Below, piece by piece: positions 1 through 64,000 of a stretch of DNA of 64,000 bases; positions within the stretch are counted from its first letter, which is position 1; each line of letters opens with the position of its first letter. This DNA comes from Brachyhypopomus gauderio (Eukaryota > Chordata > Actinopteri > Gymnotiformes > Hypopomidae). A model generated the notes under the pieces. It was not told the origin of the DNA and made no database searches. It saw only the letters and a program-made list of their open reading frames with translations. Both the position numbers and the translations under genes were made by a program. The stretch covers positions 62,001 through 126,000 of the forward strand of contig NW_027506913.1 of assembly GCF_052324685.1 (NCBI RefSeq), read 5' to 3'.

Positions 1-138
1 CAACTACAGACAAGGACTTCCAGCAACAAGATAATTAGTTGAGGTATTTGATTTGGTCAACTGAAAGACACTTTCTGTTTACAGTAGTCTTCAACAATGA
101 AAGCTGGTACAATCCCAGATAAAGAGCATGTAGCAGAA

Positions 139-210
139 AGGTTCCACCGAGAGTCGAACTCGGATTGCTGGATTCAGAGTCCAGAGTGCTAACCATTACA
201 CCATGGAACC
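139..210 (-). tRNA. tRNA-Gln (CUG), A-gene, type copy
   Basis: Inserts glutamine at CAG codons. Read on the minus strand: acceptor GGTTCCA pairs with TGGAACC and the discriminator is U73. The D-arm is GTGT/GCAC. The anticodon stem CTGGA/TCCAG closes the 7-base loop CTCTGAA, giving anticodon CUG. T-stem CCGAG/CTCGG encloses TTCGACT. A-box TGGTGTAATGG and B-box GTTCGACTC fit the internal RNA polymerase III promoter. There is no intron and, as expected for a eukaryote, no encoded CCA. The 3' flank reads CCTTTCTG, so there is no TTTT terminator. The anticodon is certain; that this copy is expressed is an inference from its intact cloverleaf. Confidence 0.95.
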
Positions 211-437
211 TACATGAGACACTTCTGAGTCTTGTTTTGCTGGGTTCACAGACCAAGTTAAGCTCAAAGTGACTTGTCATGGGAGAATGCATGTTGCAAC
301 AACTACAGACAAGGACTTCCAGCAACAAGATAATTAGTTGAGGTATTTGATTTGGTCAACTGAAAGACACTTTCTGTTTACACTAGTCTTCAACAACGAA
401 AGCTGGTACAACCCCAGATAAAGAGCATGTAGCAGAA

Positions 438-509
438 AGGTTCCACCGAGAGTCGAACTCGGATTGCTGGATTCAGAGTCCAGAGTGCTAACCATTACAC
501 CATGGAACC
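438..509 (-). tRNA. tRNA-Gln (CUG), A-gene
   Basis: Standard A-gene. The 5' flank has lost 2 bases (near 531) compared with other units, so the next gene lies 297 rather than 299 bases away. Confidence 0.95.
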
Positions 510-734
510 TACATTAGACATTTCTGAGTCGTTTTGCTGGGTTCACAGACCAAGTTAAGCTCAAAGTGACTTGTCATGGGAGAATGCAGGTTGCAACAAC
601 TACAGACAAGGACTTCCAGCAACAAGGTAATTAGTGGAGGTATTTGATTTGGTCAACTGAAAGACACTTTCTGTTTACAGTAGTCTTCAACAATGAAAGC
701 TGGTACAATCCCAGATAAAGAGCATGTAGCAGAA

Positions 735-806
735 AGGTTCCACCAAGAGTCGAACTCGGATCACTGGATTCAAAGTCCAGAGTGCTGACCATTACACCAT
801 GGAACC
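735..806 (-). tRNA. tRNA-Gln (UUG), U-gene, type copy
   Basis: Reads CAA codons, and CAG by wobble. Minus-strand reading: acceptor GGTTCCA/TGGAACC with U73, anticodon stem CTGGA/TCCAG, loop CTTTGAA with anticodon UUG, and A-box TGGTGTAATGG. B-box is GTTCGACTC. It differs from the A-gene in the anticodon, 20 (U->C, from GGTTAGC to GGTCAGC) and the base after the anticodon stem. This copy also has 63 C->U, making a G51-U63 wobble in the T-stem. As in all U-genes the 3' flank has only TTT. Confidence 0.93.
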
Positions 807-832
807 CACAGCAAAAGTTGTTTCTAGCAAAT

Positions 833-875
833 GAGTTGCTGGATTCAGAGTCCAGAATGCTAACACCATGGAACC
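833..875 (-). pseudogene. tRNA-Gln relic 1 (5' part), type copy of 54
   Basis: Reads GGTTCCATGGTGT, then TAGCATTCTGGACTCTGAA and TCCAGCAACTC on the minus strand. This is the 5' two-thirds of tRNA-Gln(CUG) with 6 bases of the D-loop lost and no T-arm or 3' acceptor. It has no B-box, so normal Pol III transcription is unlikely. The other copies start at 1899, 2964, 4390, 5456, 6222, 7648, 9013, 9779, 10845, 12509, 13275, 14341, 15706, 16772, 17538, 18903, 19969, 20735, 22100, 23166, 24531, 25597, 26663, 28028, 29393, 30459, 31525, 32591, 33657, 35022, 36387, 37453, 38519, 39884, 40950, 42315, 43381, 44447, 45812, 46878, 47944, 49907, 50973, 52039, 54002, 55068, 55835, 57200, 58266, 59332, 60697, 61763 and 63128, each 43 bases. 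Many begin GTTTCC instead of GGTTCC. Confidence 0.85.
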
Positions 876-883
876 AGCAAATA

Positions 884-946
884 GGTTTCCAACTTCTCTG
901 CCGTTGATTTCAGAGTCTGTTGTGCTTACTACTGCATCACGCAACC
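884..946 (-). pseudogene. tRNA-Gln relic 2 (ancient), type copy of 54
   Basis: Minus strand starts GGTTGCGTGATGCAGTAG and continues AAGCAC..GACTCTGAA. It aligns without gaps to the first 38 bases of tRNA-Gln with roughly two-thirds identity, including AGCAC and the complete anticodon loop with its flank. A B-box-like GTTGGAAAC follows. The anticodon stem is destroyed, so it is not functional. The 5' flank resembles that of the short unit, which supports common descent. A copy lies 51 bases to the right of the start of every relic 1. It could be chance similarity, but the matching flank argues against that. Confidence 0.65.
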
Positions 947-1201
947 AAAGAAATTAGCTTTTGTGAATACTGTTTTGCTGAACACATAGCAAAACATCCT
1001 GTCCTGAGACCCTAGCATATTTGGATTTAAATGACTTCACCAATTCTAGGATAATCAGAAAGCTGTTTGCCACAAGAACAAGCATGTAAAAATTCTGAAA
1101 ACAATTCATGAAATATGCTGGAATTATAAAGACCGCAAGCATGTGATAGAGCTTGCATGGAGAAAAGACCTGCAAGCTGGAATCAACACTAATGAATCAA
1201 A
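947..1201. other. L spacer, no gene
   Basis: This is the longest stretch without a tRNA sequence in a normal module. It holds the inverted repeat TTTTGCT/AGCAAAA (973-979/988-994), an A5 run (1088-1092, T5 on the transcribed strand) and the inverted repeat AGCTTGCA/TGCAAGCT (1150-1157/1171-1178). A reading frame of 73 codons spans it in most copies but has no recognisable domain. I see no promoter or protein gene. Confidence 0.7.
1150..1178 (-). other. Hairpin 3' of V-gene, type copy
   Basis: Perfect 8-base arms AGCTTGCA/TGCAAGCT flank 13 bases. On the transcribed strand two more G-C pairs can form beside a bulged A, leaving the loop TCTTTTCT. It lies 24 bases downstream of the V-gene 3' end and is present in every L module. 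It could fold in a read-through transcript, and its T4 run is a backup terminator candidate. Function is inferred. Confidence 0.5.
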
Positions 1202-1202
1202 A
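1199..1202 (-). terminator. Pol III terminator of V-genes, type copy
   Basis: The V-gene ends GGAACC followed by TTTT then GATTC, the first T being the discriminator base. Four T is the minimum usual Pol III stop. Every V-gene has it at the same place; A- and U-genes have only TTT here. Confidence 0.7.
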
Positions 1203-1273
1203 GGTTCCACTGAGAGTTGAACTCAGATTGCTGGATTCAGAGTCCAGAGTGCTAACCATTACACCATGGAACC
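1202..1273 (-). tRNA. tRNA-Gln (CUG), V-gene, type copy
   Basis: Same body as the A-gene, with anticodon loop CTCTGAA. The T-stem is CTGAG/CTCAG instead of CCGAG/CTCGG: the pair C50-G64 has become U50-A64, a compensatory double change that keeps the helix. The T-loop is TTCAACT (57 G->A) and the B-box GTTCAACTC still fits the consensus. The V-gene closes each L module. Its 3' end runs into TTTT, and its 5' flank usually reads CTTTTAGG, which places another T4 just upstream, where a transcript arriving from the gene to the right would stop. Confidence 0.95.
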
Positions 1274-1501
1274 TAAAAGATAAGTTCTGATTCTTCTGTT
1301 TTGCTGGGTTCACAGACCAAGTTAAGCTCAAAGTGACTTGTCTTGAGAGGATGCAAGTTGCAACAACTACAGACAAGGACTTCCAGCAACAAGATATTTA
1401 GTTGAGGTATTCGATTTGGTCAACTGAAAGACACTTTCTGTTTACAGTAGTCTTCAACAATGAAAGCTGGTACAATCCCAGATAAAGAGCATGTAGCAGA
1501 A

Positions 1502-1573
1502 AGGTTCCACCGAGAGTCGAACTCGGATTGCTGGATTCAGAGTCCAGAGTGCTAACCATTACACCATGGAACC
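1502..1573 (-). tRNA. tRNA-Gln (CUG), A-gene
   Basis: Standard A-gene, the only short unit between the L modules at 735 and 1801. Confidence 0.95.
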
Positions 1574-1800
1574 TACATTAGACACTTCTGAGTCTTGTTT
1601 TGCTCGGTTCACAGACCAAGTTAAGCTCAAAGTGACTTGTCATGGGAGAATGCAGGTTGCAACAACTACAGACAAGGACTTCCAGCAACAAGATAATTAG
1701 TTGAGGTATTTGATTTGGTCAACTGAAAGACACTTTCTGTTTACAGTAGTCTTCAACAATGAAAGCTGGTACAATCCCAGATAAAGAGTATGTAGTAGAA

Positions 1801-1872
1801 AGGTTCCACCGAGAGTCGAACTCGGATCACTGGATTCAAAGTCCAGAGTGCTGACCAATACACCATGGAACC
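1801..1872 (-). tRNA. tRNA-Gln (UUG), U-gene
   Basis: D-loop change 15 A->U (A-box TGGTGTATTGG), shared by seven U-genes of the first 12.5 kb. Acceptor, anticodon stem and T-arm are intact. Confidence 0.92.
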
Positions 1873-2267
1873 CACAGCAAAAGTTGTTTCTAGCAAATGA
1901 GTTGCTGGATTCAGAGTCCAGAATGCTAACACCATGGAAACAGCAAATAGGTTTCCAACTTCTCTGTCGTTGATTTCAGAGTCTGTTGTGCTTACTACTG
2001 CATCACGCAACCAAAGAAATTAGCTTTTGTGAATACTGTTTTGCTGAACACATAGCAAAACATCCTGTCCTGAGACCCTAGCATATTTGGATTTAAATGA
2101 CTTCACCAATTCTAGGATAATCAGAAAGCTGTTTGCCACAAGAACAAGCTTGTAAAAATTCTGAAAACAATTCATGAAATATGCTGGAATTATATAGACC
2201 GCAAGCATGTGATAGAGCTTGCATGGAGAAAAGACCTGCAAGCTGGAATCAACACTAATGAATCAAA

Positions 2268-2937: not shown

Positions 2938-3176
2938 CACAGCAAAAGTTGTTTCTAGCAAATGAGTTGCTGGATTCAGAGTCCAGAATGCTAACACCAT
3001 GGAAACAGCAAATAGGTTTCCAACTTCTCTGTCGTTGATTTCAGAGTCTGTTGTGCTTACTACTGCATCACGCAACCAAAGAAATTAGCTTTTGTGAATA
3101 CTGTTTTGCTGAACACATAGCAAAACATCCTGTCCTGAGACCCTAGCATATTTGAGAAGTTGGAAACCTATTTGCT

Positions 3177-3219
3177 GGTTCCATGGTGTTAGCATTCTGA
3201 ACTCTGAATCCAGCAACTC
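3177..3219 (+). pseudogene. tRNA-Gln relic 1, inverted
   Basis: Relic 1 on the plus strand, reading CTGAACTCTGAATC where most copies have CTGGACTCTGAATC. It is one of four tRNA-like pieces on the plus strand in the window. Confidence 0.85.
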
Positions 3220-3245
3220 ATTTGCTAGAAACAACTTTTGCCGTG

Positions 3246-3273
3246 GGTTCCATGGTGTAATGGTCAGCACTCT
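3246..3273 (+). pseudogene. tRNA-Gln (UUG) 5' fragment, inverted
   Basis: First 28 bases of a U-gene (acceptor strand, D-arm, start of the anticodon stem), cut at CACTCT and joined to spacer. It contains an A-box but no B-box. Confidence 0.85.
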
Positions 3274-3393
3274 ATTCCAATATTTCATGAAAACAATTCA
3301 TGAAATATGCTGGAATTATAAAGACCGCAAGCATGTGATAGAGCTTGCATGGAGAAAAGACCTGCAAGCTGGAATCAACACTAATGAATCAAA

Positions 3394-3465
3394 AGGTTCC
3401 ACTGAGAGTTGAACTCAGATTGCTGGATTCAGAGTCCAGAGTGCTAACCATTACACCATGGAACC
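3394..3465 (-). tRNA. tRNA-Gln (CUG), V-gene
   Basis: Standard V-gene closing the L module that carries the inversion; the module is 61 bases longer than usual. Confidence 0.95.
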
Positions 3466-6195: not shown

Positions 6196-6434
6196 CACGG
6201 CAAAAGTTGTTTCTAGCAAATGAGTTGCTGGATTCAGAGTCCAGAATGCTAACACCATGGAACCAGCAAATAGGTTTCCAACTTCTCTGCCGTTGATTTC
6301 AGAGTCTGTTGTGCTTACTACTGCATCACGCAACCAAAGAAATTAGCTTTTGTGAATACTGTTTTGCTGAACACATAGCAAAACATCCTGTCCTGAGACC
6401 CTAGCATATTTGAGAAGTTGGAAACCTATTTGCT

Positions 6435-6477
6435 GGTTCCATGGTGTTAGCATTCTGAACTCTGAATCCAGCAACTC
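6435..6477 (+). pseudogene. tRNA-Gln relic 1, inverted
   Basis: Second inverted relic 1, identical to that at 3177. Confidence 0.85.
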
Positions 6478-6503
6478 ATTTGCTAGAAACAACTTTTGCC
6501 GTG

Positions 6504-6531
6504 GGTTCCATGGTGTAATGGTCAGCACTCT
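6504..6531 (+). pseudogene. tRNA-Gln (UUG) 5' fragment, inverted
   Basis: Second inverted 28-base U-gene start, identical to that at 3246. Confidence 0.85.
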
Positions 6532-6651
6532 ATTCCAATATTTCATGAAAACAATTCATGAAATATGCTGGAATTATAAAGACCGCAAGCATGTGATAGA
6601 GCTTGCATGGAGAAAAGACCTGCAAGCTGGAATCAACACTAATGAATCAAA

Positions 6652-6723
6652 AGGTTCCACTGAGAGTTGAACTCAGATTGCTGGATTCAGAGTCCAGAGT
6701 GCTAACCATTACACCATGGAACC
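6652..6723 (-). tRNA. tRNA-Gln (CUG), V-gene
   Basis: Standard V-gene of the second inversion-bearing module. Confidence 0.95.
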
Positions 6724-20708: not shown

Positions 20709-21103
20709 CACAGCAAAAGTTGTTTCTAGCAAATGAGTTGCTGGATTCAGAGTCCAGAATGCTAACACCATGGAACCAGCAAATAGGTTTCCAACTTCTC
20801 TGCCGTTGATTTCAGAGTCTGTTGTGCTTACTACTGCATCACGCAACCAAAGAAGTTAGCTTTTGTGAATACTGTTTTGCTGAACACATAGCAAAACATC
20901 CTGTCCTGAGACCCTAGCATATTTGGATTTAAATGACTTCACCAATTCTAGGATAATCAGAAAGCTGTTTGCCACAAGAACAAGCATGTAAAAATTCTGA
21001 AAACAATTCATGAAATATGCTGGAATTATATAGACCGCAAGCATGTGATAGAGCTTGCATGGAGAAAAGACCTGCAAGCTGGAATCAACACTAATGAATC
21101 AAA

Positions 21104-21175
21104 AGGTTCCACTGAGAGTTGAACTCAGATTGCTGGATTCAAAGTACAGAGTGCTAACCATTACACCATGGAACC
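21104..21175 (-). tRNA. tRNA-Gln (UUG) by anticodon switch in a V-gene
   Basis: A V-gene by T-stem, flanks and 30 G->U, but the anticodon loop is CTTTGAA: position 34 has changed C->U, turning CUG into UUG. It is the only such case among 54 V-genes; its duplicate at 17907 keeps CUG. The amino acid is unchanged. The U30-C40 mismatch may weaken the tRNA. A gene-conversion patch from a U-gene is less likely, since neighbouring U-gene marks are absent. Confidence 0.85.
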
Positions 21176-21403
21176 TAAAAGATAAGTTCTGATTCTTCTG
21201 TTTTGCTGGGTTCACAGACCAAGTTAAGCTCAAAGTGACTTGTCTTGAGAGGATGCAAGTTGCAACAACTACAGACAAGGACTTCCAGCAACAAGATATT
21301 TAGTTGAGGTATTCGATTTGGTCAACTGAAAGACACTTTCTGTTTACAGTAGTCTTCAACAATGAAAGCTGGTACAATCCCAGATAAAGAGCATGTAGCA
21401 GAA

Positions 21404-32564: not shown

Positions 32565-32959
32565 CACGGCAAAAGTTGTTTCTAGCAAATGAGTTGCTGG
32601 ATTCAGAGTCCAGAATGCTAACACCATGGAACCAGCAAATAGGTTTCCAACTTCTCTGCCGTTGATTTCAGAGTCTGTTGTGCTTACTACTGCATCACGC
32701 AACCAAAGAAATTAGCTTTTGTGAATACTGTTTTGCTGAACACATAGCAAAACATCCTGTCCTGAGACCCTAGCATATTTGGATTTAAATGACTTCACCA
32801 ATTCTAGGATAATCAGAAAGCTGTTTGCCACAAGAACAAGCATGTAAAAATTCTGAAAACAATTCATGAAATATGCTGGAATTATAAAGACCGCAAGCAT
32901 GTGATAGAGCTTGCATGGAGAAAAGACCTGCAAGCTGGAATCAACACTAATGAATCAAA

Positions 32960-33031
32960 AGGTTCCACTGAGAGTTGAACTCAGATTGCTGGATTCAGAG
33001 TCCAGAGTGCTAACCATTACACCATGGAACC
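32960..33031 (-). tRNA. tRNA-Gln (CUG), V-gene
   Basis: Standard V-gene. Confidence 0.95.
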
Positions 33032-33259
33032 TAAAAGATAAGTTCTGATTCTTCTGTTTTGCTGGGTTCACAGACCAAGTTAAGCTCAAAGTGACTTGTC
33101 TTGAGAGGATGCAAGTTGCAACAACTACAGACAAGGACTTCCAGCAACAAGATATTTAGTTGAGGTATTCGATTTGGTCAACTGAAAGACACTTTCTGTT
33201 TACAGTAGTCTTCAACAATGAAAGCTGGTACAATCCCAGATAAAGAGCATGTAGCAGAA

Positions 33260-33331
33260 AGGTTCCACCGAGAGTCGAACTCGGATTGCTGGATTCAGAG
33301 TCCAGAGTGCTAACCATTACACCATGGAACC
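33260..33331 (-). tRNA. tRNA-Gln (CUG), A-gene
   Basis: Standard; partner of 26266. Confidence 0.95.
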
Positions 33332-33558
33332 TACTTTAGACACTTCTGAGTCTTGTTTTGCTCGGTTCACAGACCAAGTTAAGCTCAAAGTGACTTGTCA
33401 TGGGAGAATGCAGGTTGCAACAACTACAGACAAGGACTTCCAGCAACAAGATAATTAGTTGAGGTATTTGATTTGGTCAACTGAAAGACACTTTCTGTTT
33501 ACAGTAGTCTTCAACAATGAAAGCTGGTACAATCCCAGATAAAGAGCATGTAGCAGAA

Positions 33559-33630
33559 AGGTTCCACCGAGAGTCGAACTCGGATCACTGGATTCAAAGT
33601 CCAGAGTGCTGACCATTACACCATGGAACC
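33559..33630 (-). tRNA. tRNA-Gln (UUG), U-gene
   Basis: Standard. Confidence 0.95.
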
Positions 33631-34025
33631 CACAGCAAAAGTTGTTTCTAGCAAATGAGTTGCTGGATTCAGAGTCCAGAATGCTAACACCATGGAAACA
33701 GCAAATAGGTTTCCAACTTCTCTGCCGTTGATTTCAGAGTCTGTTGTGCTTACTACTGCATCACGCAACCAAAGAAATTAGCTTTTGTGAATACTGTTTT
33801 GCTGAACACATAGCAAAACATCCTGTCCTGAGACCCTAGCATATTTGGATTTAAATGACTTCACCAATTCTAGGATAATCAGAAAGCTGTTTGCCACAAG
33901 AACAAGCATGTAAAAATTCTGAAAACAATTCATGAAATATGCTGGAATTATAAAGACCGCAAGCATGTGATAGAGCTTGCATGGAGAAAAGACCTGCAAG
34001 CTGGAATCAACACTAATGAATCAAA

Positions 34026-34097
34026 AGGTTCCACTGAGAGTTGAACTCAGATTGCTGGATTCAGAGTCCAGAGTGCTAACCATTACACCATGGAACC
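34026..34097 (-). tRNA. tRNA-Gln (CUG), V-gene
   Basis: Standard V-gene. Confidence 0.95.
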
Positions 34098-34325
34098 TAA
34101 AAGATAAGTTCTGATTCTTCTGTTTTGCTGGGTTCACAGACCAAGTTAAGCTCAAAGTGACTTGTCTTGAGAGGATGCAAGTTGCAACAACTACAGACAA
34201 GGACTTCCAGCAACAAGATGTTTAGTTGAGGTATTCGATTTGGTCAACTGAAAGACACTTTCTGTTTACACTAGTCTTCAACAACGAAAGCTGGTACAAC
34301 CCCTGATAAAGAGCATGTAGCAGAA

Positions 34326-34397
34326 AGGTTCCACCGAGAGTCGAACTTGGATTGCTGAATTCAGAGTCCAGCGTGCTAACCATTACACCATGGAACC
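34326..34397 (-). tRNA. tRNA-Gln (CUG), C-gene, 40 C->U
   Basis: Partner of 27332. Confidence 0.8.
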
Positions 34398-34624
34398 TAC
34401 GTTAGACACTTCTGAGTCTTGTTTTGCTGGGTTCACAGACCAAGTTAAGCTCAAATTGACTTGTCTTGAGAGGATGCAGGTTGCAACAACTACAGACAAG
34501 GACTTCCAGCAACAAGATATTTAGTTGAGGTATTCGATTTGGTCAACTGAAAGACACTTTCTGTTTACAGTAGTCTTCAACAACGAAAGCTGGTACAATC
34601 CCAGATAAAGAGCATGTAGCAGAA

Positions 34625-34696
34625 AGGTTCCACCGAGAGTCGAACTCGGATTGCTGGATTCAGAGTCCAGAGTGCTAACCATTACACCATGGAACC
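34625..34696 (-). tRNA. tRNA-Gln (CUG), A-gene
   Basis: Standard; second of a pair. Confidence 0.95.
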
Positions 34697-34923
34697 TACT
34701 TTAGACACTTCTGAGTCTTGTTTTGCTCGGTTCACAGACCAAGTTAAGCTCAAAGTGACTTGTCATGGGAGAATGCAGGTTGCAACAACTACAGACAAGG
34801 ACTTCCAGCAACAAGATAATTAGTTGAGGTATTTGATTTGGTCAACTGAAAGACACTTTCTGTTTACAGTAGTCTTCAACAATGAAAGCTGGTACAATCC
34901 CAGATAAAGAGCATGTAGCAGAA

Positions 34924-34995
34924 AGGTTCCACCGAGAGTCGAACTCGGATCACTGGATTCAAAGTCCAGAGTGCTGACCATTACACCATGGAACC
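34924..34995 (-). tRNA. tRNA-Gln (UUG), U-gene
   Basis: Standard. Confidence 0.95.
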
Positions 34996-35390
34996 CACAG
35001 CAAAAGTTGTTTCTAGCAAATGAGTTGCTGGATTCAGAGTCCAGAATGCTAACACCATGGAAACAGCAAATAGGTTTCCAACTTCTCTGCCGTTGATTTC
35101 AGAGTCTGTTGTGCTTACTACTGCATCACGCAACCAAAGAAATTAGCTTTTGTGAATACTGTTTTGCTGAACACATAGCAAAACATCCTGTCCTGAGACC
35201 CTAGCATATTTGGATTTAAATGACTTCACCAATTCTAGGATAATCAGAAAGCTGTTTGCCACAAGAACAAGCATGTAAAAATTCTGAAAACAATTCATGA
35301 AATATGCTGGAATTATAAAGACCGCAAGCATGTGATAGAGCTTGCATGGAGAAAAGACCTGCAAGCTGGAATCAACACTAATGAATCAAA

Positions 35391-35462
35391 AGGTTCCACT
35401 GAGAGTTGAACTCAGATTGCTGGATTCAGAGTCCAGAGTGCTAACCATTACACCATGGAACC
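35391..35462 (-). tRNA. tRNA-Gln (CUG), V-gene
   Basis: Standard V-gene. Confidence 0.95.
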
Positions 35463-35690
35463 TAAAAGATAAGTTCTGATTCTTCTGTTTTGCTGGGTTC
35501 ACAGACCAAGTTAAGCTCAAAGTGACTTGTCTTGAGAGGATGCAAGTTGCAACAACTACAGACAAGGACTTCCAGCAACAAGATATTTAGTTGAGGTATT
35601 CGATTTGGTCAACTGAAAGACACTTTCTGTTTACAGTAGTCTTCAACAATGAAAGCTGGTACAATCCCAGATAAAGAGCATGTAGCAGAA

Positions 35691-35762
35691 AGGTTCCACC
35701 GAGAGTCGAACTCGGATTGCTGGATTCAGAGTCCAGAGTGCTAACCATTACACCATGGAACC
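35691..35762 (-). tRNA. tRNA-Gln (CUG), A-gene
   Basis: Standard; first of a pair. Confidence 0.95.
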
Positions 35763-35989
35763 TACATGAGACACTTCTGAGTCTTGTTTTGCTGGGTTCA
35801 CAGACCAAGTTAAGCTCAAAGTGACTTGTCATGGGAGAATGCATGTTGCAACAACTACAGACAAGGACTTCCAGCAACAAGATAATTAGTTGAGGTATTT
35901 GATTTGGTCAACTGAAAGACACTTTCTGTTTACACTAGTCTTCAACAACGAAAGCTGGTACAACCCCAGATAAAGAGCATGTAGCAGAA

Positions 35990-36061
35990 AGGTTCCACCG
36001 AGAGTCGAACTCGGATTGCTGGATTCAGAGTGCAGAGTGCTAACCATTACACCATGGAACC
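35990..36061 (-). tRNA. tRNA-Gln (CUG), A-gene, 30 G->C
   Basis: C30-C40 mismatch; partner of 28996 and 56803. Confidence 0.83.
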
Positions 36062-36288
36062 TACATTAGACATTTCTGAGTCTTGTTTTGCTGGGTTCAC
36101 AGACCAAGTTAAGCTCAAAGTGACTTGTCATGGGAGAATGCAGGTTGCAACAACTACAGACAAGGACTTCCAGCAACAAGGTAATTAGTGGAGGTATTTG
36201 ATTTGGTCAACTGAAAGACACTTTCTGTTTACAGTAGTCTTCAACAATGAAAGCTGGTACAATCCCAGATAAAGAGCATGTAGCAGAA

Positions 36289-36360
36289 AGGTTCCACCGA
36301 GAGTCGAACTCGGATCACTGGATTCAAAGTCCAGAGTGCTGACCATTACACCATGGAACC
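36289..36360 (-). tRNA. tRNA-Gln (UUG), U-gene
   Basis: Standard. Confidence 0.95.
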
Positions 36361-36755
36361 CACAGCAAAAGTTGTTTCTAGCAAATGAGTTGCTGGATTC
36401 AGAGTTCAGAATGCTAACACCATGGAACCAGCAAATAGGTTTCCAACTTCTCTGCCGTTGATTTCAGAGTCTGTTGTGCTTACTACTGCATCACGCAACC
36501 AAAGAAATTAGCTTTTGTGAATACTGTTTTGCTGAACACATAGCAAAACATCCTGTCCTGAGACCCTAGCATATTTGGATTTAAATGACTTCACCAATTC
36601 TAGGATAATCAGAAAGCTGTTTGCCACAAGAACAAGCATGTAAAAATTCTGAAAACAATTCATGAAATATGCTGGAATTATAAAGACCGCAAGCATGTGA
36701 TAGAGCTTGCATGGAGAAAAGACCTGCAAGCTGGAATCAACACTAATGAATCAAA

Positions 36756-36827
36756 AGGTTCCACTGAGAGTTGAACTCAGATTGCTGGATTCAGAGTCCA
36801 GAGTGCTAACCATTACACCATGGAACC
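36756..36827 (-). tRNA. tRNA-Gln (CUG), V-gene
   Basis: Standard V-gene. Confidence 0.95.
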
Positions 36828-37055
36828 TAAAAGATAAGTTCTGATTCTTCTGTTTTGCTGGGTTCACAGACCAAGTTAAGCTCAAAGTGACTTGTCTTGA
36901 GAGGATGCAAGTTGCAACAACTACAGACAAGGACTTCCAGCAACAAGATGTTTAGTTGAGGTATTCGATTTGGTCAACTGAAAGACACTTTCTGTTTACA
37001 CTAGTCTTCAACAACGAAAGCTGGTACAACCCCTGATAAAGAGCATGTAGCAGAA

Positions 37056-37127
37056 AAGTTCCACCGAGAGTCGAACTTGGATTGCTGGATTCAGAGTCCA
37101 GCGTGCTAACCATTACACCATGGAACC
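37056..37127 (-). tRNA. tRNA-Gln (CUG), C-gene, 72 C->U
   Basis: G1-U72 wobble with TTTT at the 3' end. Confidence 0.77.
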
Positions 37128-37354
37128 TACGTTAGACACTTCTGAGTCTTGTTTTGCTTGGTTCACAGACCAAGTTAAGCTCAAAGTGACTTGTCATGGG
37201 AGAATGCATGTTGCAACAACTACAGACAAGGACTTCCAGCAACAAGATAATTAGTTGAGGTATTTGATTTGGTCAACTGAAAGACACTTTCTGTTTACAG
37301 TAGTCTTCAACAATGAAAGCTGGTACAATCCCAGATAAAGAGCATGTAGCAGAA

Positions 37355-37426
37355 AGGTTCCACCGAGAGTCGAACTCGGATCACAGGATTCAAAGTCCAG
37401 AGTGCTGACCATTACACCATGGAACC
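37355..37426 (-). tRNA. tRNA-Gln (UUG), U-gene, U28-U42 form
   Basis: Anticodon-stem U-U mismatch. Confidence 0.85.
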
Positions 37427-37821
37427 CACGGCAAAAGTTGTTTCTAGCAAATGAGTTGCTGGATTCAGAGTCCAGAATGCTAACACCATGGAACCAGCAA
37501 ATAGGTTTCCAACTTCTCTGCCGTTGATTTCAGAGTCTGTTGTGCTTACTACTGCATCACGCAACCAAAGAAATTAGCTTTTGTGAATACTGTTTTGCTG
37601 AACACATAGCAAAACATCCTGTCCTGAGACCCTAGCATATTTGGATTTAAATGACTTCACCAATTCTAGGATAATCAGAAAGCTGTTTGCCACAAGAACA
37701 AGCATGTAAAAATTCTGAAAACAATTCATGAAATATGCTGGAATTATAAAGACCGCAAGCATGTGATAGAGCTTGCATGGAGAAAAGACCTGCAAGCTGG
37801 AATCAACACTAATGAATCAAA

Positions 37822-37893
37822 AGGTTCCACTGAGAGTTGAACTCAGATTGCTGGATTCAGAGTCCAGAGTGCTAACCATTACACCATGGAACC
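37822..37893 (-). tRNA. tRNA-Gln (CUG), V-gene
   Basis: Standard V-gene. Confidence 0.95.
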
Positions 37894-38121
37894 TAAAAGA
37901 TAAGTTCTGATTCTTCTGTTTTGCTGGGTTCACAGACCAAGTTAAGCTCAAAGTGACTTGTCTTGAGAGGATGCAAGTTGCAACAACTACAGACAAGGAC
38001 TTCCAGCAACAAGATATTTAGTTGAGGTATTCGATTTGGTCAACTGAAAGACACTTTCTGTTTACAGTAGTCTTCAACAATGAAAGTTGGTACAATCCCA
38101 GATAAAGAGCATGTAGCAGAA

Positions 38122-56575: not shown

Positions 56576-56802
56576 TACGTTAGACACTTCTGAGTCTTGT
56601 TTTGCTGGGTTCACAGACCAAGTTAAGCTCAAATTGACTTGTCTTGAGAGGATGCAGGTTGCAACAACTACAGACAAGGACTTCCAGCAACAAGATATTT
56701 AGTTGAGGTATTCGATTTGGTCAACTGAAAGACACTTTCTGTTTACACTAGTCTTCAACAACGAAAGCTGGTACAACCCCAGATAAAGAGCATGTAGCAG
56801 AA

Positions 56803-56874
56803 AGGTTCCACCGAGAGTCGAACTCGGATTGCTGGATTCAGAGTGCAGAGTGCTAACCATTACACCATGGAACC
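56803..56874 (-). tRNA. tRNA-Gln (CUG), A-gene, 30 G->C
   Basis: C30-C40 mismatch; left end of the 20.8-kb-distant copy of 35990. Confidence 0.83.
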
Positions 56875-57101
56875 TACATTAGACATTTCTGAGTCTTGTT
56901 TTGCTGGGTTCACAGACCAAGTTAAGCTCAAAGTGACTTGTCATGGGAGAATGCAGGTTGCAACAACTACAGACAAGGACTTCCAGCAACAAGGTAATTA
57001 GTGGAGGTATTTGATTTGGTCAACTGAAAGACACTTTCTGTTTACAGTAGTCTTCAACAATGAAAGCTGGTACAATCCCAGATAAAGAGCATGTAGCAGA
57101 A

Positions 57102-57173
57102 AGGTTCCACCGAGAGTCGAACTCGGATCACTGGATTCAAAGTCCAGAGTGCTGACCATTACACCATGGAACC
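57102..57173 (-). tRNA. tRNA-Gln (UUG), U-gene
   Basis: Standard. Confidence 0.95.
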
Positions 57174-57568
57174 CACAGCAAAAGTTGTTTCTAGCAAATG
57201 AGTTGCTGGATTCAGAGTTCAGAATGCTAACACCATGGAACCAGCAAATAGGTTTCCAACTTCTCTGCCGTTGATTTCAGAGTCTGTTGTGCTTACTACT
57301 GCATCACGCAACCAAAGAAATTAGCTTTTGTGAATACTGTTTTGCTGAACACATAGCAAAACATCCTGTCCTGAGACCCTAGCATATTTGGATTTAAATG
57401 ACTTCACCAATTCTAGGATAATCAGAAAGCTGTTTGCCACAAGAACAAGCATGTAAAAATTCTGAAAACAATTCATGAAATATGCTGGAATTATAAAGAC
57501 CGCAAGCATGTGATAGAGCTTGCATGGAGAAAAGACCTGCAAGCTGGAATCAACACTAATGAATCAAA

Positions 57569-57640
57569 AGGTTCCACTGAGAGTTGAACTCAGATTGCTG
57601 GATTCAGAGTCCAGAGTGCTAACCATTACACCATGGAACC
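57569..57640 (-). tRNA. tRNA-Gln (CUG), V-gene
   Basis: Standard V-gene. Confidence 0.95.
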
Positions 57641-57868
57641 TAAAAGATAAGTTCTGATTCTTCTGTTTTGCTGGGTTCACAGACCAAGTTAAGCTCAAAG
57701 TGACTTGTCTTGAGAGGATGCAAGTTGCAACAACTACAGACAAGGACTTCCAGCAACAAGATGTTTAGTTGAGGTATTCGATTTGGTCAACTGAAAGACA
57801 CTTTCTGTTTACACTAGTCTTCAACAACGAAAGCTGGTACAACCCCTGATAAAGAGCATGTAGCAGAA

Positions 57869-57940
57869 AAGTTCCACCGAGAGTCGAACTTGGATTGCTG
57901 GATTCAGAGTCCAGCGTGCTAACCATTACACCATGGAACC
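57869..57940 (-). tRNA. tRNA-Gln (CUG), C-gene, 72 C->U
   Basis: G1-U72 wobble with TTTT; partner of 37056. Confidence 0.77.
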
Positions 57941-58167
57941 TACGTTAGACACTTCTGAGTCTTGTTTTGCTTGGTTCACAGACCAAGTTAAGCTCAAAGT
58001 GACTTGTCATGGGAGAATGCATGTTGCAACAACTACAGACAAGGACTTCCAGCAACAAGATAATTAGTTGAGGTATTTGATTTGGTCAACTGAAAGACAC
58101 TTTCTGTTTACAGTAGTCTTCAACAATGAAAGCTGGTACAATCCCAGATAAAGAGCATGTAGCAGAA

Positions 58168-58239
58168 AGGTTCCACCGAGAGTCGAACTCGGATCACAGG
58201 ATTCAAAGTCCAGAGTGCTGACCATTACACCATGGAACC
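58168..58239 (-). tRNA. tRNA-Gln (UUG), U-gene, U28-U42 form
   Basis: Partner of 37355. Confidence 0.85.
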
Positions 58240-58634
58240 CACGGCAAAAGTTGTTTCTAGCAAATGAGTTGCTGGATTCAGAGTCCAGAATGCTAACACC
58301 ATGGAACCAGCAAATAGGTTTCCAACTTCTCTGCCGTTGATTTCAGAGTCTGTTGTGCTTACTACTGCATCACGCAACCAAAGAAATTAGCTTTTGTGAA
58401 TACTGTTTTGCTGAACACATAGCAAAACATCCTGTCCTGAGACCCTAGCATATTTGGATTTAAATGACTTCACCAATTCTAGGATAATCAGAAAGCTGTT
58501 TGCCACAAGAACAAGCATGTAAAAATTCTGAAAACAATTCATGAAATATGCTGGAATTATAAAGACCGCAAGCATGTGATAGAGCTTGCATGGAGAAAAG
58601 ACCTGCAAGCTGGAATCAACACTAATGAATCAAA

Positions 58635-58706
58635 AGGTTCCACTGAGAGTTGAACTCAGATTGCTGGATTCAGAGTCCAGAGTGCTAACCATTACACCAT
58701 GGAACC
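58635..58706 (-). tRNA. tRNA-Gln (CUG), V-gene
   Basis: Standard V-gene. Confidence 0.95.
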
Positions 58707-58934
58707 TAAAAGATAAGTTCTGATTCTTCTGTTTTGCTGGGTTCACAGACCAAGTTAAGCTCAAAGTGACTTGTCTTGAGAGGATGCAAGTTGCAACAAC
58801 TACAGACAAGGACTTCCAGCAACAAGATATTTAGTTGAGGTATTCGATTTGGTCAACTGAAAGACACTTTCTGTTTACAGTAGTCTTCAACAATGAAAGT
58901 TGGTACAATCCCAGATAAAGAGCATGTAGCAGAA

Positions 58935-59006
58935 AGGTTCCACCGAGAGTCGAACTCGGATTGCTGGATTCAGAGTCCAGAGTGCTAACCATTACACCAT
59001 GGAACC
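58935..59006 (-). tRNA. tRNA-Gln (CUG), A-gene
   Basis: Standard; partner of 38122 with the same private flank change. Confidence 0.95.
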
Positions 59007-59233
59007 TACTTTAGACACTTCTGAGTCTTGTTTTGCTCGGTTCACAGACCAAGTTAAGCTCAAAGTGACTTGTCATGGGAGAATGCAGGTTGCAACAACT
59101 ACAGACAAGGACTTCCAGCAACAAGATAATTAGTTGAGGTATTTGATTTGGTCAACTGAAAGACACTTTCTGTTTACAGTAGTCTTCAACAATGAAAGCT
59201 GGTACAATCCCAGATAAAGAGCATGTAGCAGAA

Positions 59234-59305
59234 AGGTTCCACCGAGAGTCGAACTCGGATCACTGGATTCAAAGTCCAGAGTGCTGACCATTACACCATG
59301 GAACC
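59234..59305 (-). tRNA. tRNA-Gln (UUG), U-gene
   Basis: Standard. Confidence 0.95.
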
Positions 59306-59700
59306 CACAGCAAAAGTTGTTTCTAGCAAATGAGTTGCTGGATTCAGAGTCCAGAATGCTAACACCATGGAAACAGCAAATAGGTTTCCAACTTCTCTGC
59401 CGTTGATTTCAGAGTCTGTTGTGCTTACTACTGCATCACGCAACCAAAGAAATTAGCTTTTGTGAATACTGTTTTGCTGAACACATAGCAAAACATCCTG
59501 TCCTGAGACCCTAGCATATTTGGATTTAAATGACTTCACCAATTCTAGGATAATCAGAAAGCTGTTTGCCACAAGAACAAGCATGTAAAAATTCTGAAAA
59601 CAATTCATGAAATATGCTGGAATTATAAAGACCGCAAGCATGTGATAGAGCTTGCATGGAGAAAAGACCTGCAAGCTGGAATCAACACTAATGAATCAAA

Positions 59701-59772
59701 AGGTTCCACTGAGAGTTGAACTCAGATTGCTGGATTCAGAGTCCAGAGTGCTAACCATTACACCATGGAACC
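59701..59772 (-). tRNA. tRNA-Gln (CUG), V-gene
   Basis: Standard V-gene. Confidence 0.95.
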
Positions 59773-60000
59773 TAAAAGATAAGTTCTGATTCTTCTGTTT
59801 TGCTGGGTTCACAGACCAAGTTAAGCTCAAAGTGACTTGTCTTGAGAGGATGCAAGTTGCAACAACTACAGACAAGGACTTCCAGCAACAAGATGTTTAG
59901 TTGAGGTATTCGATTTGGTCAACTGAAAGACACTTTCTGTTTACACTAGTCTTCAACAACGAAAGCTGGTACAACCCCTGATAAAGAGCATGTAGCAGAA

Positions 60001-60072
60001 AGGTTCCACCGAGAGTCGAACTTGGATTGCTGAATTCAGAGTCCAGCGTGCTAACCATTACACCATGGAACC
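60001..60072 (-). tRNA. tRNA-Gln (CUG), C-gene, 40 C->U
   Basis: Partner of 39188. Confidence 0.8.
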
Positions 60073-60299
60073 TACGTTAGACACTTCTGAGTCTTGTTTT
60101 GCTGGGTTCACAGACCAAGTTAAGCTCAAATTGACTTGTCTTGAGAGGATGCAGGTTGCAACAACTACAGACAAGGACTTCCAGCAACAAGATATTTAGT
60201 TGAGGTATTCGATTTGGTCAACTGAAAGACACTTTCTGTTTACAGTAGTCTTCAACAACGAAAGCTGGTACAATCCCAGATAAAGAGCATGTAGCAGAA

Positions 60300-60371
60300 A
60301 GGTTCCACCGAGAGTCGAACTCGGATTGCTGGATTCAGAGTCCAGAGTGCTAACCATTACACCATGGAACC
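60300..60371 (-). tRNA. tRNA-Gln (CUG), A-gene
   Basis: Standard; partner of 39487. Confidence 0.95.
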
Positions 60372-60598
60372 TACTTTAGACACTTCTGAGTCTTGTTTTG
60401 CTCGGTTCACAGACCAAGTTAAGCTCAAAGTGACTTGTCATGGGAGAATGCAGGTTGCAACAACTACAGACAAGGACTTCCAGCAACAAGATAATTAGTT
60501 GAGGTATTTGATTTGGTCAACTGAAAGACTCTTTCTGTTTACAGTAGTCTTCAACAATGAAAGCTGGTACAATCCCAGATAAAGAGCATGTAGCAGAA

Positions 60599-60670
60599 AG
60601 GTTCCACCGAGAGTCGAACTCGGATCACTGGATTCAAAGTCCAGAGTGCTGACCATTACACCATGGAACC
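60599..60670 (-). tRNA. tRNA-Gln (UUG), U-gene
   Basis: Standard; partner of 39786 with the GACTCTTTC flank. Confidence 0.95.
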
Positions 60671-61065
60671 CACAGCAAAAGTTGTTTCTAGCAAATGAGT
60701 TGCTGGATTCAGAGTCCAGAATGCTAACACCATGGAAACAGCAAATAGGTTTCCAACTTCTCTGCCGTTGATTTCAGAGTCTGTTGTGCTTACTACTGCA
60801 TCACGCAACCAAAGAAATTAGCTTTTGTGAATACTGTTTTGCTGAACACATAGCAAAACATCCTGTCCTGAGACCCTAGCATATTTGGATTTAAATGACT
60901 TCACCAATTCTAGGATAATCAGAAAGCTGTTTGCCACAAGAACAAGCATGTAAAAATTCTGAAAACAATTCATGAAATATGCTGGAATTATAAAGACCGC
61001 AAGCATGTGATAGAGCTTGCATGGAGAAAAGACCTGCAAGCTGGAATCAACACTAATGAATCAAA

Positions 61066-61137
61066 AGGTTCCACTGAGAGTTGAACTCAGATTGCTGGAT
61101 TCAGAGTCCAGAGTGCTAACCATTACACCATGGAACC
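61066..61137 (-). tRNA. tRNA-Gln (CUG), V-gene
   Basis: Standard V-gene. Confidence 0.95.
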
Positions 61138-61365
61138 TAAAAGATAAGTTCTGATTCTTCTGTTTTGCTGGGTTCACAGACCAAGTTAAGCTCAAAGTGA
61201 CTTGTCTTGAGAGGATGCAAGTTGCAACAACTACAGACAAGGACTTCCAGCAACAAGATGTTTAGTTGAGGTATTCGATTTGGTCAACTGAAAGACACTT
61301 TCTGTTTACACTAGTCTTCAACAACGAAAGCTGTAACAACCCCTGATAAAGAGCATGTAGCAGAA

Positions 61366-61437
61366 AGGTTCCACCGAGAGTCGAACTCGGATTGCTGGAT
61401 TCAGAGTCCAGAGTGCTAACCATTACACCATGGAACC
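61366..61437 (-). tRNA. tRNA-Gln (CUG), A-gene in C-type flanks
   Basis: Partner of 40553. Confidence 0.94.
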
Positions 61438-61664
61438 TACGTTAGACACTTCTGAGTCTTGTTTTGCTCGGTTCACAGACCAAGTTAAGCTCAAAGTGAC
61501 TTGTCATGGGAGAATGCAGGTTGCAACAACTACAGACAAGGACTTCCAGCAACAAGATAATTAGTTGAGGTATTTGATTTGGTCAACTGAAAGACACTTT
61601 CTGTTTACAGTAGTCTTCAACAATGAAAGCTGGTACAATCCCAGATAAAGAGCATGTAACAGAA

Positions 61665-61736
61665 AGGTTCCACCGAGAGTCGAACTCGGATCACTGGATT
61701 CAAAGTCCAGAGTGCTGACCATTACACCATGGAACC
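61665..61736 (-). tRNA. tRNA-Gln (UUG), U-gene
   Basis: Standard; GTAACAG flank, partner of 40852. Confidence 0.95.
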
Positions 61737-62131
61737 CACAGCAAAAGTTGTTTCTAGCAAATGAGTTGCTGGATTCAGAGTCCAGAATGCTAACACCATG
61801 GAAACAGCAAATAGGTTTCCAACTTCTCTGCCGTTGATTTCAGAGTCTGTTGTGCTTACTACTGCATCACGCAACCAAAGAAATTAGCTTTTGTGAATAC
61901 TGTTTTGCTGAACACATAGCAAAACATCCTGTCCTGAGACCCTAGCATATTTGGATTTAAATGACTTCACCAATTCTAGGATAATCAGAAAGCTGTTTGC
62001 CACAAGAACAAGCATGTAAAAATTCTGAAAACAATTCATGAAATATGCTGGAATTATAAAGACCGCAAGCATGTGATAGAGCTTGCATGGAGAAAAGACC
62101 TGCAAGCTGGAATCAACACTAATGAATCAAA

Positions 62132-62203
62132 AGGTTCCACTGAGAGTTGAACTCAGATTGCTGGATTCAGAGTCCAGAGTGCTAACCATTACACCATGGA
62201 ACC
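62132..62203 (-). tRNA. tRNA-Gln (CUG), V-gene
   Basis: Standard V-gene. Confidence 0.95.
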
Positions 62204-62431
62204 TAAAAGATAAGTTCTGATTCTTCTGTTTTGCTGGGTTCACAGACCAAGTTAAGCTCAAAGTGACTTGTCTTGAGAGGATGCAAGTTGCAACAACTAC
62301 AGACAAGGACTTCCAGCAACAAGATGTTTAGTTGAGGTATTCGATTTGGTCAACTGAAAGACACTTTCTGTTTACACTAGTCTTCAACAACGAAAGCTGG
62401 TACAACCCCTGATAAAGAGCATGTAGCAGAA

Positions 62432-62503
62432 AGGTTCCACCGAGAGTCGAACTTGGATTGCTGAATTCAGAGTCCAGCGTGCTAACCATTACACCATGGA
62501 ACC
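62432..62503 (-). tRNA. tRNA-Gln (CUG), C-gene, 40 C->U
   Basis: Partner of 41619. Confidence 0.8.
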
Positions 62504-62730
62504 TACGTTAGACACTTCTGAGTCTTGTTTTGCTGGGTTCACAGACCAAGTTAAGCTCAAATTGACTTGTCTTGAGAGGATGCAGGTTGCAACAACTACA
62601 GACAAGGACTTCCAGCAACAAGATATTTAGTTGAGGTATTCGATTTGGTCAACTGAAAGACACTTTCTGTTTACAGTAGTCTTCAACAACGAAAGCTGGT
62701 ACAATCCCAGATAAAGAGCATGTAGCAGAA

Positions 62731-62802
62731 AGGTTCCACCGAGAGTCGAACTCGGATTGCTGGATTCAGAGTCCAGAGTGCTAACCATTACACCATGGAA
62801 CC
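62731..62802 (-). tRNA. tRNA-Gln (CUG), A-gene
   Basis: Standard; partner of 41918. Confidence 0.95.
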
Positions 62803-63029
62803 TACTTTAGACACTTCTGAGTCTTGTTTTGCTCGGTTCACAGACCAAGTTAAGCTCAAAGTGACTTGTCATGGGAGAATGCAGGTTGCAACAACTACAG
62901 ACAAGGACTTCCAGCAACAAGATAATTAGTTGAGGTATTTGATTTGGTCAACTGAAAGACACTTTCTGTTTACAGTAGTCTTCAACAATGAAAGCTGGTA
63001 CAATCCCAGATAAAGAGCATGTAGCAGAA

Positions 63030-63101
63030 AGGTTCCACCGAGAGTCGAACTCGGATCACTGGATTCAAAGTCCAGAGTGCTGACCATTACACCATGGAAC
63101 C
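63030..63101 (-). tRNA. tRNA-Gln (UUG), U-gene
   Basis: Standard; last U-gene in the window. Confidence 0.95.
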
Positions 63102-63496
63102 CACAGCAAAAGTTGTTTCTAGCAAATGAGTTGCTGGATTCAGAGTCCAGAATGCTAACACCATGGAAACAGCAAATAGGTTTCCAACTTCTCTGCCGTT
63201 GATTTCAGAGTCTGTTGTGCTTACTACTGCATCACGCAACCAAAGAAATTAGCTTTTGTGAATACTGTTTTGCTGAACACATAGCAAAACATCCTGTCCT
63301 GAGACCCTAGCATATTTGGATTTAAATGACTTCACCAATTCTAGGATAATCAGAAAGCTGTTTGCCACAAGAACAAGCATGTAAAAATTCTGAAAACAAT
63401 TCATGAAATATGCTGGAATTATAAAGACCGCAAGCATGTGATAGAGCTTGCATGGAGAAAAGACCTGCAAGCTGGAATCAACACTAATGAATCAAA

Positions 63497-63568
63497 AGGT
63501 TCCACTGAGAGTTGAACTCAGATTGCTGGATTCAGAGTCCAGAGTGCTAACCATTACACCATGGAACC
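63497..63568 (-). tRNA. tRNA-Gln (CUG), V-gene
   Basis: Standard; last V-gene in the window. Confidence 0.95.
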
Positions 63569-63796
63569 TAAAAGATAAGTTCTGATTCTTCTGTTTTGCT
63601 GGGTTCACAGACCAAGTTAAGCTCAAAGTGACTTGTCTTGAGAGGATGCAAGTTGCAACAACTACAGACAAGGACTTCCAGCAACAAGATGTTTAGTTGA
63701 GGTATTCGATTTGGTCAACTGAAAGACACTTTCTGTTTACACTAGTCTTCAACAACGAAAGCTGTAACAACCCCTGATAAAGAGCATGTAGCAGAA

Positions 63797-63868
63797 AGGT
63801 TCCACCGAGAGTCGAACTCGGATTGCTGGATTCAGAGTCCAGAGTGCTAACCATTACACCATGGAACC
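63797..63868 (-). tRNA. tRNA-Gln (CUG), A-gene in C-type flanks
   Basis: Chimeric unit, partner of 42984. The array continues beyond the right end of the window. Confidence 0.94.
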
Positions 63869-64000
63869 TACGTTAGACACTTCTGAGTCTTGTTTTGCTC
63901 GGTTCACAGACCAAGTTAAGCTCAAAGTGACTTGTCATGGGAGAATGCAGGTTGCAACAACTACAGACAAGGACTTCCAGCAACAAGATAATTAGTTGAG

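What the first reader, a model, noticed from the sequence alone, without database searches (positions are those of the whole stretch)
1..64000. 183 tRNA-Gln sequences of one isotype in a single-strand array
Every tRNA in 64 kb is glutamine, all on the minus strand, with neither array end in the window. This far exceeds what translation of CAA/CAG should need. Either the array is a selfish or structural satellite built from tRNA genes, or it serves some demand such as burst expression in eggs, tRNA fragments, or TFIIIC-bound chromatin. Mixed-isotype tRNA arrays are known in fish and amphibians; a pure Gln array with this grammar is not one I know.
Basis: partly seen in the sequence, partly recalled or inferred. 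Interest (0 to 1): 0.85.

Follow-up and report, generated by a model that had tools for sequence, protein, structure and literature searches.

The report
Giant glutamine tRNA gene tandem array
A 64,000-base stretch is one long run of 183 near-identical glutamine tRNA genes that duplicates itself like a satellite repeat and carries mutation scars of the kind DNA methylation leaves; very large tandem tRNA arrays are already known, so the kind is not new, though this pure two-anticodon version is striking.

Summary
ARAGORN finds 183 tRNA-Gln genes (128 CTG, 55 TTG), all on the minus strand, against 0 in 20 shuffles; Rfam also gives 183 matches. The array runs past both window edges. It is a higher-order repeat: in transcription order a cycle is one TTG gene, 0-4 CTG genes, one distinctive CTG gene, then a long spacer. 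Exact copies of up to 7,287 bp show recent block duplication. Gene bodies vary as often as flanks (19/216 vs 65/850 sites, P=0.57), 51 of 183 genes have a promoter-box or stem defect, CpG is depleted (o/e 0.26) and CpG-type body mutations are in excess (5 seen, 0.82 expected, P=0.0012). Best reading: real, mostly Pol III-competent tRNA genes that expanded by unequal exchange as a macrosatellite and were methylated in the germ line; copy number reflects recombination more than codon demand. Oocyte or early-embryo expression, as in amphibian tandem tRNA arrays, is plausible but untested. Host unknown: the own-genome search did not complete (eight tries). The kind is known.

The parts
1..64000 (-). 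Tandem array of 183 tRNA-Gln genes; both ends outside the window
807..1873 (-). Example cycle (1,066 bp, the commonest length, 26 of 54): First TTG 1800-1873, Mid CTG 1501-1574, Last CTG 1201-1274, then the 395-nt long spacer 807-1201
734..807 (-). First-class gene (TTG); 54 of 54 First genes are TTG; run of 3 T at the 3' end, counting the discriminator base
1501..1574 (-). Mid-class gene (CTG); 73 of 73 Mid genes are CTG; 0-4 per cycle
1201..1274 (-). Last-class gene (CTG in 53 of 54); T stem CTGAG/CTCAG instead of CCGAG/CTCGG; run of 4 T at the 3' end, counting the discriminator base, in 54 of 54
827..875 (-). Decayed tRNA-Gln 5' half in the long spacer, beginning 61 nt (by the pattern used) before each First gene; 54 minus-strand copies
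2938..3465 (.). 528-bp spacing variant with an inverted insertion; plus-strand arm 3154-3273 is a 97-98% inverted copy of First 5' flank and body start
6196..6723 (.). Second 528-bp spacing variant, with a plus-strand tRNA-Gln 5'-half relic at 6443
21103..21176 (-). Last-class gene with anticodon TTG instead of CTG
56714..64000 (-). 7,287-bp block repeated exactly at a distance of 20,813 bp; runs to the window edge
31567..38086 (-). 6,520-bp block repeated exactly at a distance of 6,994 bp

Best explanation
This is part of a long tandem tRNA-Gln gene family that behaves as a macrosatellite. Step 1 (inferred): an ancestral tRNA-Gln gene plus about 230 nt of flank duplicated and diverged into First (TTG), Mid (CTG) and Last (CTG) classes. 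Step 2 (shown by anatomy): these form a 766-1,963-bp higher-order unit with one long spacer. Step 3 (exact repeats shown, mechanism inferred): unequal exchange at two scales, adding or removing single 299-bp Mid units and duplicating blocks of several kb, expands and homogenises the array. Step 4 (inferred from CpG decay): the array has been CpG-methylated in the germ line, so most copies are probably silent most of the time. Step 5 (inferred, untested): most genes can still be transcribed by Pol III if opened, for example in oocytes or at zygotic genome activation; copy number is set mainly by recombination, not by codon demand.
For: Higher-order structure: 54 cycles holding 180 of 182 units, 26 of type T299-C300-C467 and 14 with one extra Mid. 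Anticodon fixed by position: First TTG 54/54, Mid CTG 73/73, Last CTG 53/54. Exact repeats of 7,287, 6,520 and 3,769 bp. Nearer cycles tend to be more alike (1,365-bp cycles: rho -0.40, 2 of 999 permutations as low; 1,066-bp cycles: rho -0.14, 48 of 999, and not monotonic). Six Last genes carry a Mid-type 5' flank, a recombination mosaic. Body segregating sites 19/216 vs flanks 65/850, P=0.57. Six of 19 body mutations break a stem pair, 7.2 expected. CpG o/e 0.26 while GpC is 0.94 and TpG and CpA are 1.4; CpG transitions 5 of 19 body mutations, 0.82 expected, P=0.0012; 5/12 CpG sites hit vs 14/204 others, P=0.0016. The Last consensus has none of the 3 T-arm CpGs that First and Mid have. 132 of 183 genes keep A box, B-box core and all 20 checked pairs.
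Against: All 183 genes still read Gln, and the seven First/Mid/Last class differences all keep 20 of 20 pairs, including a C-G to T-A double change, which hints at older selection (P 0.085-0.15 in simulation, not significant). Bodies keep more CpG (o/e 0.46) than spacers (0.12-0.22). Gene conversion rather than unequal crossover could also homogenise. CpG depletion may simply be the host's genome-wide level. Methylation need not mean silence: the methylated Arabidopsis SYY cluster is expressed in root cap despite high methylation, and its authors doubt that methylation is what silences it (PMC12308677 passages). No expression, methylation or host data; mutations are few and copies are not independent.
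Confidence: 0.6

Rival explanations
1. Oocyte/early-embryo tRNA bank: the array is selected to give a burst of tRNA-Gln in oocytes or at zygotic genome activation and is methylated and silent elsewhere.
For: Xenopus oocyte-specific tandem tRNA arrays are enriched in 5fC and activated by Pol III at genome activation (PMC11500080, a commentary, part 1 of 2 read); Xenopus has oocyte and somatic tRNA genes, the newt Pleurodeles about 150,000 tRNA genes, and many axolotl 5hmC foci coincide with Pol III sites (PMC3565088 passages). The CpG decay fits a methylated array, and 132/183 genes look competent.
Against: No host identity or expression; bodies not more conserved than flanks; an egg needs all isotypes, and only Gln is in the window.
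Confidence: 0.25
2. Selfish or structural satellite: the copies matter as DNA (TFIIIC-bound chromatin, boundary, centromere or heterochromatin), not as tRNA.
For: Satellite-like evolution and higher-order repeats; A box in 176/183 and B-box core in 178/183; the human 1q23.3 tRNA tandem repeat binds CTCF and is a proposed boundary (PMC4041453 passages).
Against: Nothing in the window shows a chromatin role; most copies keep full tRNA structure, more than TFIIIC binding alone needs; the human case is GC-rich and CTCF-bound, whereas this array is CpG-poor and was not scanned for CTCF sites.
Confidence: 0.12
3. A tRNA-derived SINE family that became tandem.
For: Schistosoma mansoni's apparent excess of tRNA-Gln-TTG proved to be SINE-like (PMC2770079 passages); a paper listing reports tandem repeats derived from SINEs in scaled reptiles (PMC10702118, listing and start of abstract only).
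Against: All 183 are complete tRNAs with regular head-to-tail spacing of 297-528 bp. I made no dedicated search for tails or target-site duplications.
Confidence: 0.05
4. Assembly artefact: a real but shorter array inflated by false duplication.
For: Exact 7.3-kb and 6.5-kb repeats; identical cycles (36 distinct of 54).
Against: More than half of the cycles differ, and mosaic and inverted variants occur in the left third, outside the largest exact repeats.
Confidence: 0.06

Closest known systems
Homogeneous tDNA clusters of eukaryotes (survey PMC2888827, passages)
   Same: Adjacent tDNAs under 1,000 nt apart, one isoacceptor family, parallel orientation; clusters of 50 or more in Nematostella and teleosts
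   Different: This one has at least 183 Gln genes, a two-anticodon higher-order unit and no end in the window; the passages seen do not say whether the largest clusters are of one isotype
Amphibian tandem oocyte-type Pol III gene arrays (PMC3565088 passages; PMC11500080, part 1 of 2; the original Parasyraki 2024 paper not held)
   Same: High-copy tandem Pol III genes linked to modified cytosine
   Different: Expression, measured methylation and host are unknown here; that the Xenopus tRNA unit carries mixed isotypes is recalled
Arabidopsis SYY tRNA cluster (PMC12308677, abstract and passages)
   Same: Compound tandem unit with position-biased gene variants; mix of intact and defective copies; methylated there, methylation inferred here
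   Different: Ser/Tyr in a plant; tissue-specific expression is shown there and not here
Entamoeba tRNA arrays (PMC2652664, abstract and passages)
   Same: Tandem units, some with a single gene such as His-GTG and Gly-GCC; concerted evolution proposed
   Different: Protist; in the table rows seen, Gln genes share units with other isotypes
Human 1q23.3 tRNA VNTR (PMC4041453 passages)
   Same: Tandem, copy-number variable, 98% identical units
   Different: 7.3-kb GC-rich CpG-island unit with several tRNA genes, binding CTCF
Zebrafish Chr4R tRNA concentration (PMC11075544 passages)
   Same: Massive tRNA gene expansion in a heterochromatic region, with proposed maternal use

Membership tests
Homogeneous tDNA cluster | Neighbouring tDNAs within 1,000 nt | tested here: met
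   All 182 spacings are 297-528 bp
Homogeneous tDNA cluster | One amino acid family | tested here: met
   183 of 183 Gln
Higher-order satellite (macrosatellite) | Head-to-tail units in a repeated multi-unit order, homogenised | tested here: met
Higher-order satellite (macrosatellite) | No conserved coding or RNA gene function | tested here: inconclusive
   132/183 genes structurally intact by simple rules; no excess conservation of the body
Oocyte-type tandem tRNA array | Modified or methylated CpG | tested here: inconclusive
   CpG o/e 0.26 and CpG-type mutation excess are indirect; host background unknown
Oocyte-type tandem tRNA array | Expressed in oocyte or at genome activation | not testable with these tools
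   No expression data or host identity
tRNA-derived SINE | Dispersed copies with target-site duplications and a non-tRNA tail | tested here: inconclusive
   Within the window the copies are tandem complete tRNAs; no dedicated search for duplications or tails; genome-wide dispersal unchecked (own-genome search unanswered)
Functional eukaryotic tRNA gene set | Internal A and B boxes, cloverleaf, no encoded CCA | tested here: met
   A box 176/183, B-box core 178/183, both boxes and no broken pair 132/183; no CCA after the discriminator in 183/183. 51 of 183 fail at least one rule
Functional eukaryotic tRNA gene set | Run of at least 4 T at the gene end (canonical Pol III terminator) | tested here: not met
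   Met by the Last class only, 54/54; First 0/54 and Mid 0/73 have TTTCT. A review says only 50-60% of human tRNA genes have a T-stretch within 15 bp (PMC11346459 passage), so this does not disqualify them

The most novel reading that the evidence does not exclude
Each cycle may be one regulated Pol III unit: weakly terminated First and Mid genes followed by one strongly terminated Last gene, in a methylated array switched on in the germ line or early embryo to flood the cell with one isoacceptor family (or its fragments), with the TTG:CTG ratio hard-wired by the cycle.
Probability: 0.07. Interest if true: 0.8.

Novelty: new member of a known kind. Interest (0 to 1): 0.42.

Why it matters
Why some animals carry thousands of tandem tRNA genes is an open question. 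Here the array is a clean natural experiment: one isotype, three position-fixed classes with distinguishing body variants, and mutation evidence that bears on methylation. Class-specific variants (for example the T stem CTGAG/CTCAG of Last) would let tRNA sequencing say directly whether such arrays are expressed, when, and from which copies.

Tried and rejected
Host identification failed: the own-genome search did not complete in eight tries; a spacer 25-mer and a eukaryotic tRNA-Gln pattern gave 0 matches in viral contigs and a tRNA-Gln pattern 0 in prokaryote genome contigs, as expected for a eukaryotic sequence. Phage, plasmid, E. coli and metagenome collections were not searched. The Schistosoma tRNA-Gln lead was set aside because that excess is SINE-like and nearly all TTG. 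The firefly lead was a mitochondrial tRNA-Gln mention; the sedge/rush paper showed ordinary tRNA numbers in the passages seen.

Depletion of TTTT from the short spacers as a sign of selected read-through: 80 of 128 lack it and the other 48 have it just before Last, but 8-19% of shuffles lack it too, so not significant. Class differences all keeping pairs: P 0.085-0.15, not significant. Rfam Plastid-ycf2 matches on the plus strand (bases 1-8000 only) are below the gathering score and antisense to the tRNAs. ORFs of 70 aa or more number 79, 73-97 aa, all listed with TTG starts and recurring with the repeat; not pursued.

Rows dropped before a count: in the body-versus-flank test I left out the Last-class segment 172-221 (24 of 50 segregating, probably owed to the two inverted variants); with it flanks are 89/900 and P=0.70. 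The 150-nt flanks on the two sides overlap inside 227-nt spacers, so some flank positions count twice. The two edge genes were not classed (181 of 183 classed).
Full report
OBSERVATION. ARAGORN finds 183 tRNA genes in the 64,000-base window, all tRNA-Gln and all on the minus strand, 128 with anticodon CTG and 55 with TTG. Rfam at gathering threshold gives 183 matches; the 150 displayed are all minus-strand tRNA. Twenty dinucleotide shuffles of the window give none. The 182 spacings are 299 (79), 467 (52), 300 (48), 528 (2) and 297 (1) bp. The first 137 bases match the spacer of the next unit at 134 of 137 positions and an exact repeat runs to the last base, so the array continues on both sides.

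ANATOMY. Read on the transcribed strand, the array is a higher-order repeat. Cutting after each long spacing gives 54 cycles that hold 180 of the 182 units: 26 are T299-C300-C467 (1,066 bp), 14 have one more Mid gene (1,365 bp), 5 have none (766 bp), and 9 are variants, one of them cut by the window edge; cycles hold 0-4 Mid genes. Position fixes the anticodon: genes after the long spacer (First) are TTG in 54 of 54, middle genes (Mid) CTG in 73 of 73, genes before the long spacer (Last) CTG in 53 of 54; two edge genes were not classed. The exception, at 21103-21176, is a single C34T change. The commonest long spacer (395 nt) has no good alignment to the short one and holds a decayed 5' half of a tRNA-Gln beginning 61 nt before First (54 minus copies at up to 4 mismatches, plus 2 on the plus strand). 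Two cycles carry a small inverted insertion.

ARE THEY GENES? No CCA is encoded (183 of 183), an A box is present in 176, a B-box core in 178, and 132 of 183 have both boxes and no broken pair among 20 checked pairs. So 51 have at least one lesion by these simple rules, which are mine and not a trained score. Only Last genes have a run of four T at the 3' end, counting the discriminator base (54 of 54); First and Mid have three T followed by C. A review states that only 50-60% of human tRNA genes have a T-stretch within 15 bp (PMC11346459, passage), so weak terminators are not disqualifying.

HOW IT EVOLVES. Exact repeats of 7,287 bp (lag 20,813), 6,520 bp (lag 6,994) and 3,769 bp (lag 4,095) show recent block duplication; 36 of 54 cycles are distinct. 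Cycles of equal length are on average 98.8% (26 of 1,066 bp) and 98.7% (15 of 1,365 bp) alike. Similarity falls with distance, clearly for the 1,365-bp cycles (2 of 999 permutations) and marginally for the 1,066-bp ones (48 of 999), where the nearest bin is not the most alike. Six Last genes have a Mid-type 5' flank, so breakpoints fall inside units. Within classes, body positions vary as often as flanks (19/216 vs 65/850, P=0.57; with the one flank segment I had left out, 89/900, P=0.70). Of 19 body mutations 6 break a stem pair against 7.2 expected. Thus no purifying selection on single copies is detectable. That is expected both for a neutral satellite and for a redundant gene family, so it does not decide between them.

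CpG DECAY. CpG observed/expected is 0.26 for the window, 0.12-0.22 for spacers and 0.46 for gene bodies, while GpC is 0.94 and TpG and CpA are 1.4. Of 19 body mutations 5 are CpG transitions, 0.82 expected (P=0.0012); 5 of 12 CpG positions are hit against 14 of 204 others (P=0.0016). The Last consensus lacks all three T-arm CpGs that First and Mid have; two of these changes fall on the two sides of one pair, turning C49-G63 into T49-A63, so the pair is kept. At positions 44-45 First has TG and Mid and Last have CA, the two decay products of one CpG; that the ancestor had CG there rests on recall of vertebrate tRNA-Gln. The simplest reading is long-term germ-line CpG methylation in a host with vertebrate-like methylation. 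The host's own CpG level is unknown, so the array may be no more methylated than its surroundings.

EXPLANATION. The most likely story is an ordinary tRNA-Gln gene that entered a tandem array, diverged into three classes and is expanded and homogenised by unequal exchange, with copy number governed by recombination. Methylation probably keeps most copies silent most of the time: a review collects evidence that methylation lowers tRNA gene transcription (PMC11346459, passages). Against this, the methylated Arabidopsis SYY tRNA cluster, silent in most tissues, is active in root cap despite high methylation, and its authors doubt that methylation is what silences it (PMC12308677, abstract and passages). 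Whether this array is ever used, for example in oocytes, cannot be read from the sequence. The case for an oocyte bank comes from other organisms: oocyte-specific tandem tRNA arrays in Xenopus are enriched in 5fC and activated by Pol III at genome activation (PMC11500080, a commentary, part 1 of 2 read; the original paper is not held); the newt Pleurodeles has about 150,000 tRNA genes and many axolotl 5hmC foci coincide with Pol III sites (PMC3565088, passages).

COMPARISON AND NOVELTY. By the criteria of the eukaryotic tDNA survey (neighbours within 1,000 nt, one amino acid) this is a homogeneous tDNA cluster; clusters of 50 or more are reported there for Nematostella and teleosts (PMC2888827, passages). 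Single-gene tRNA arrays exist in Entamoeba (PMC2652664, passages). A human tRNA tandem repeat is GC-rich, a CpG island and CTCF-bound (PMC4041453, passages), unlike this one. Zebrafish Chr4R concentrates tRNA genes in heterochromatin, with maternal use proposed (PMC11075544, passages). Zebrafish and Xenopus tropicalis counts (10,471 and 3,457 loci) are in PMC9858662 (passages). In the rows listed by ten full-text searches I saw no pure Gln higher-order array; lists 17, 28, 35, 43 and 44 were capped and most subscription papers are not in that library. I therefore call it a new member of a known kind.

LIMITS. The host is unknown because the own-genome search did not complete, and the collections I did scan hold viral and prokaryote sequence. 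There are no expression or methylation data. Mutation counts are small and copies are related by descent, so the P values are guides.

Noticed in passing
3154-3273 and around 6443 (plus strand): Small inverted insertions in the two 528-bp spacings place the start of a tRNA-Gln gene and a 5'-half relic on the plus strand.
   Followed up: partly
827-875 and the matching place in the other long spacers: A decayed tRNA-Gln 5' half sits at a constant 61 nt before each First gene, 54 minus-strand copies, perhaps a lost fourth gene of the ancestral unit.
   Followed up: partly
Last genes starting at 2268, 5825, 9382, 12878, 17141, 20338: Six Last genes have a Mid-type 5' flank and a 299-bp spacing; all lie in the left third of the window, at intervals of about 3.2-4.3 kb.
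   Followed up: partly
Last genes, for example 1201-1274: Only Last genes end in a run of four T; a TTTT also lies just upstream of 48 of the 54 Last genes.
   Followed up: partly
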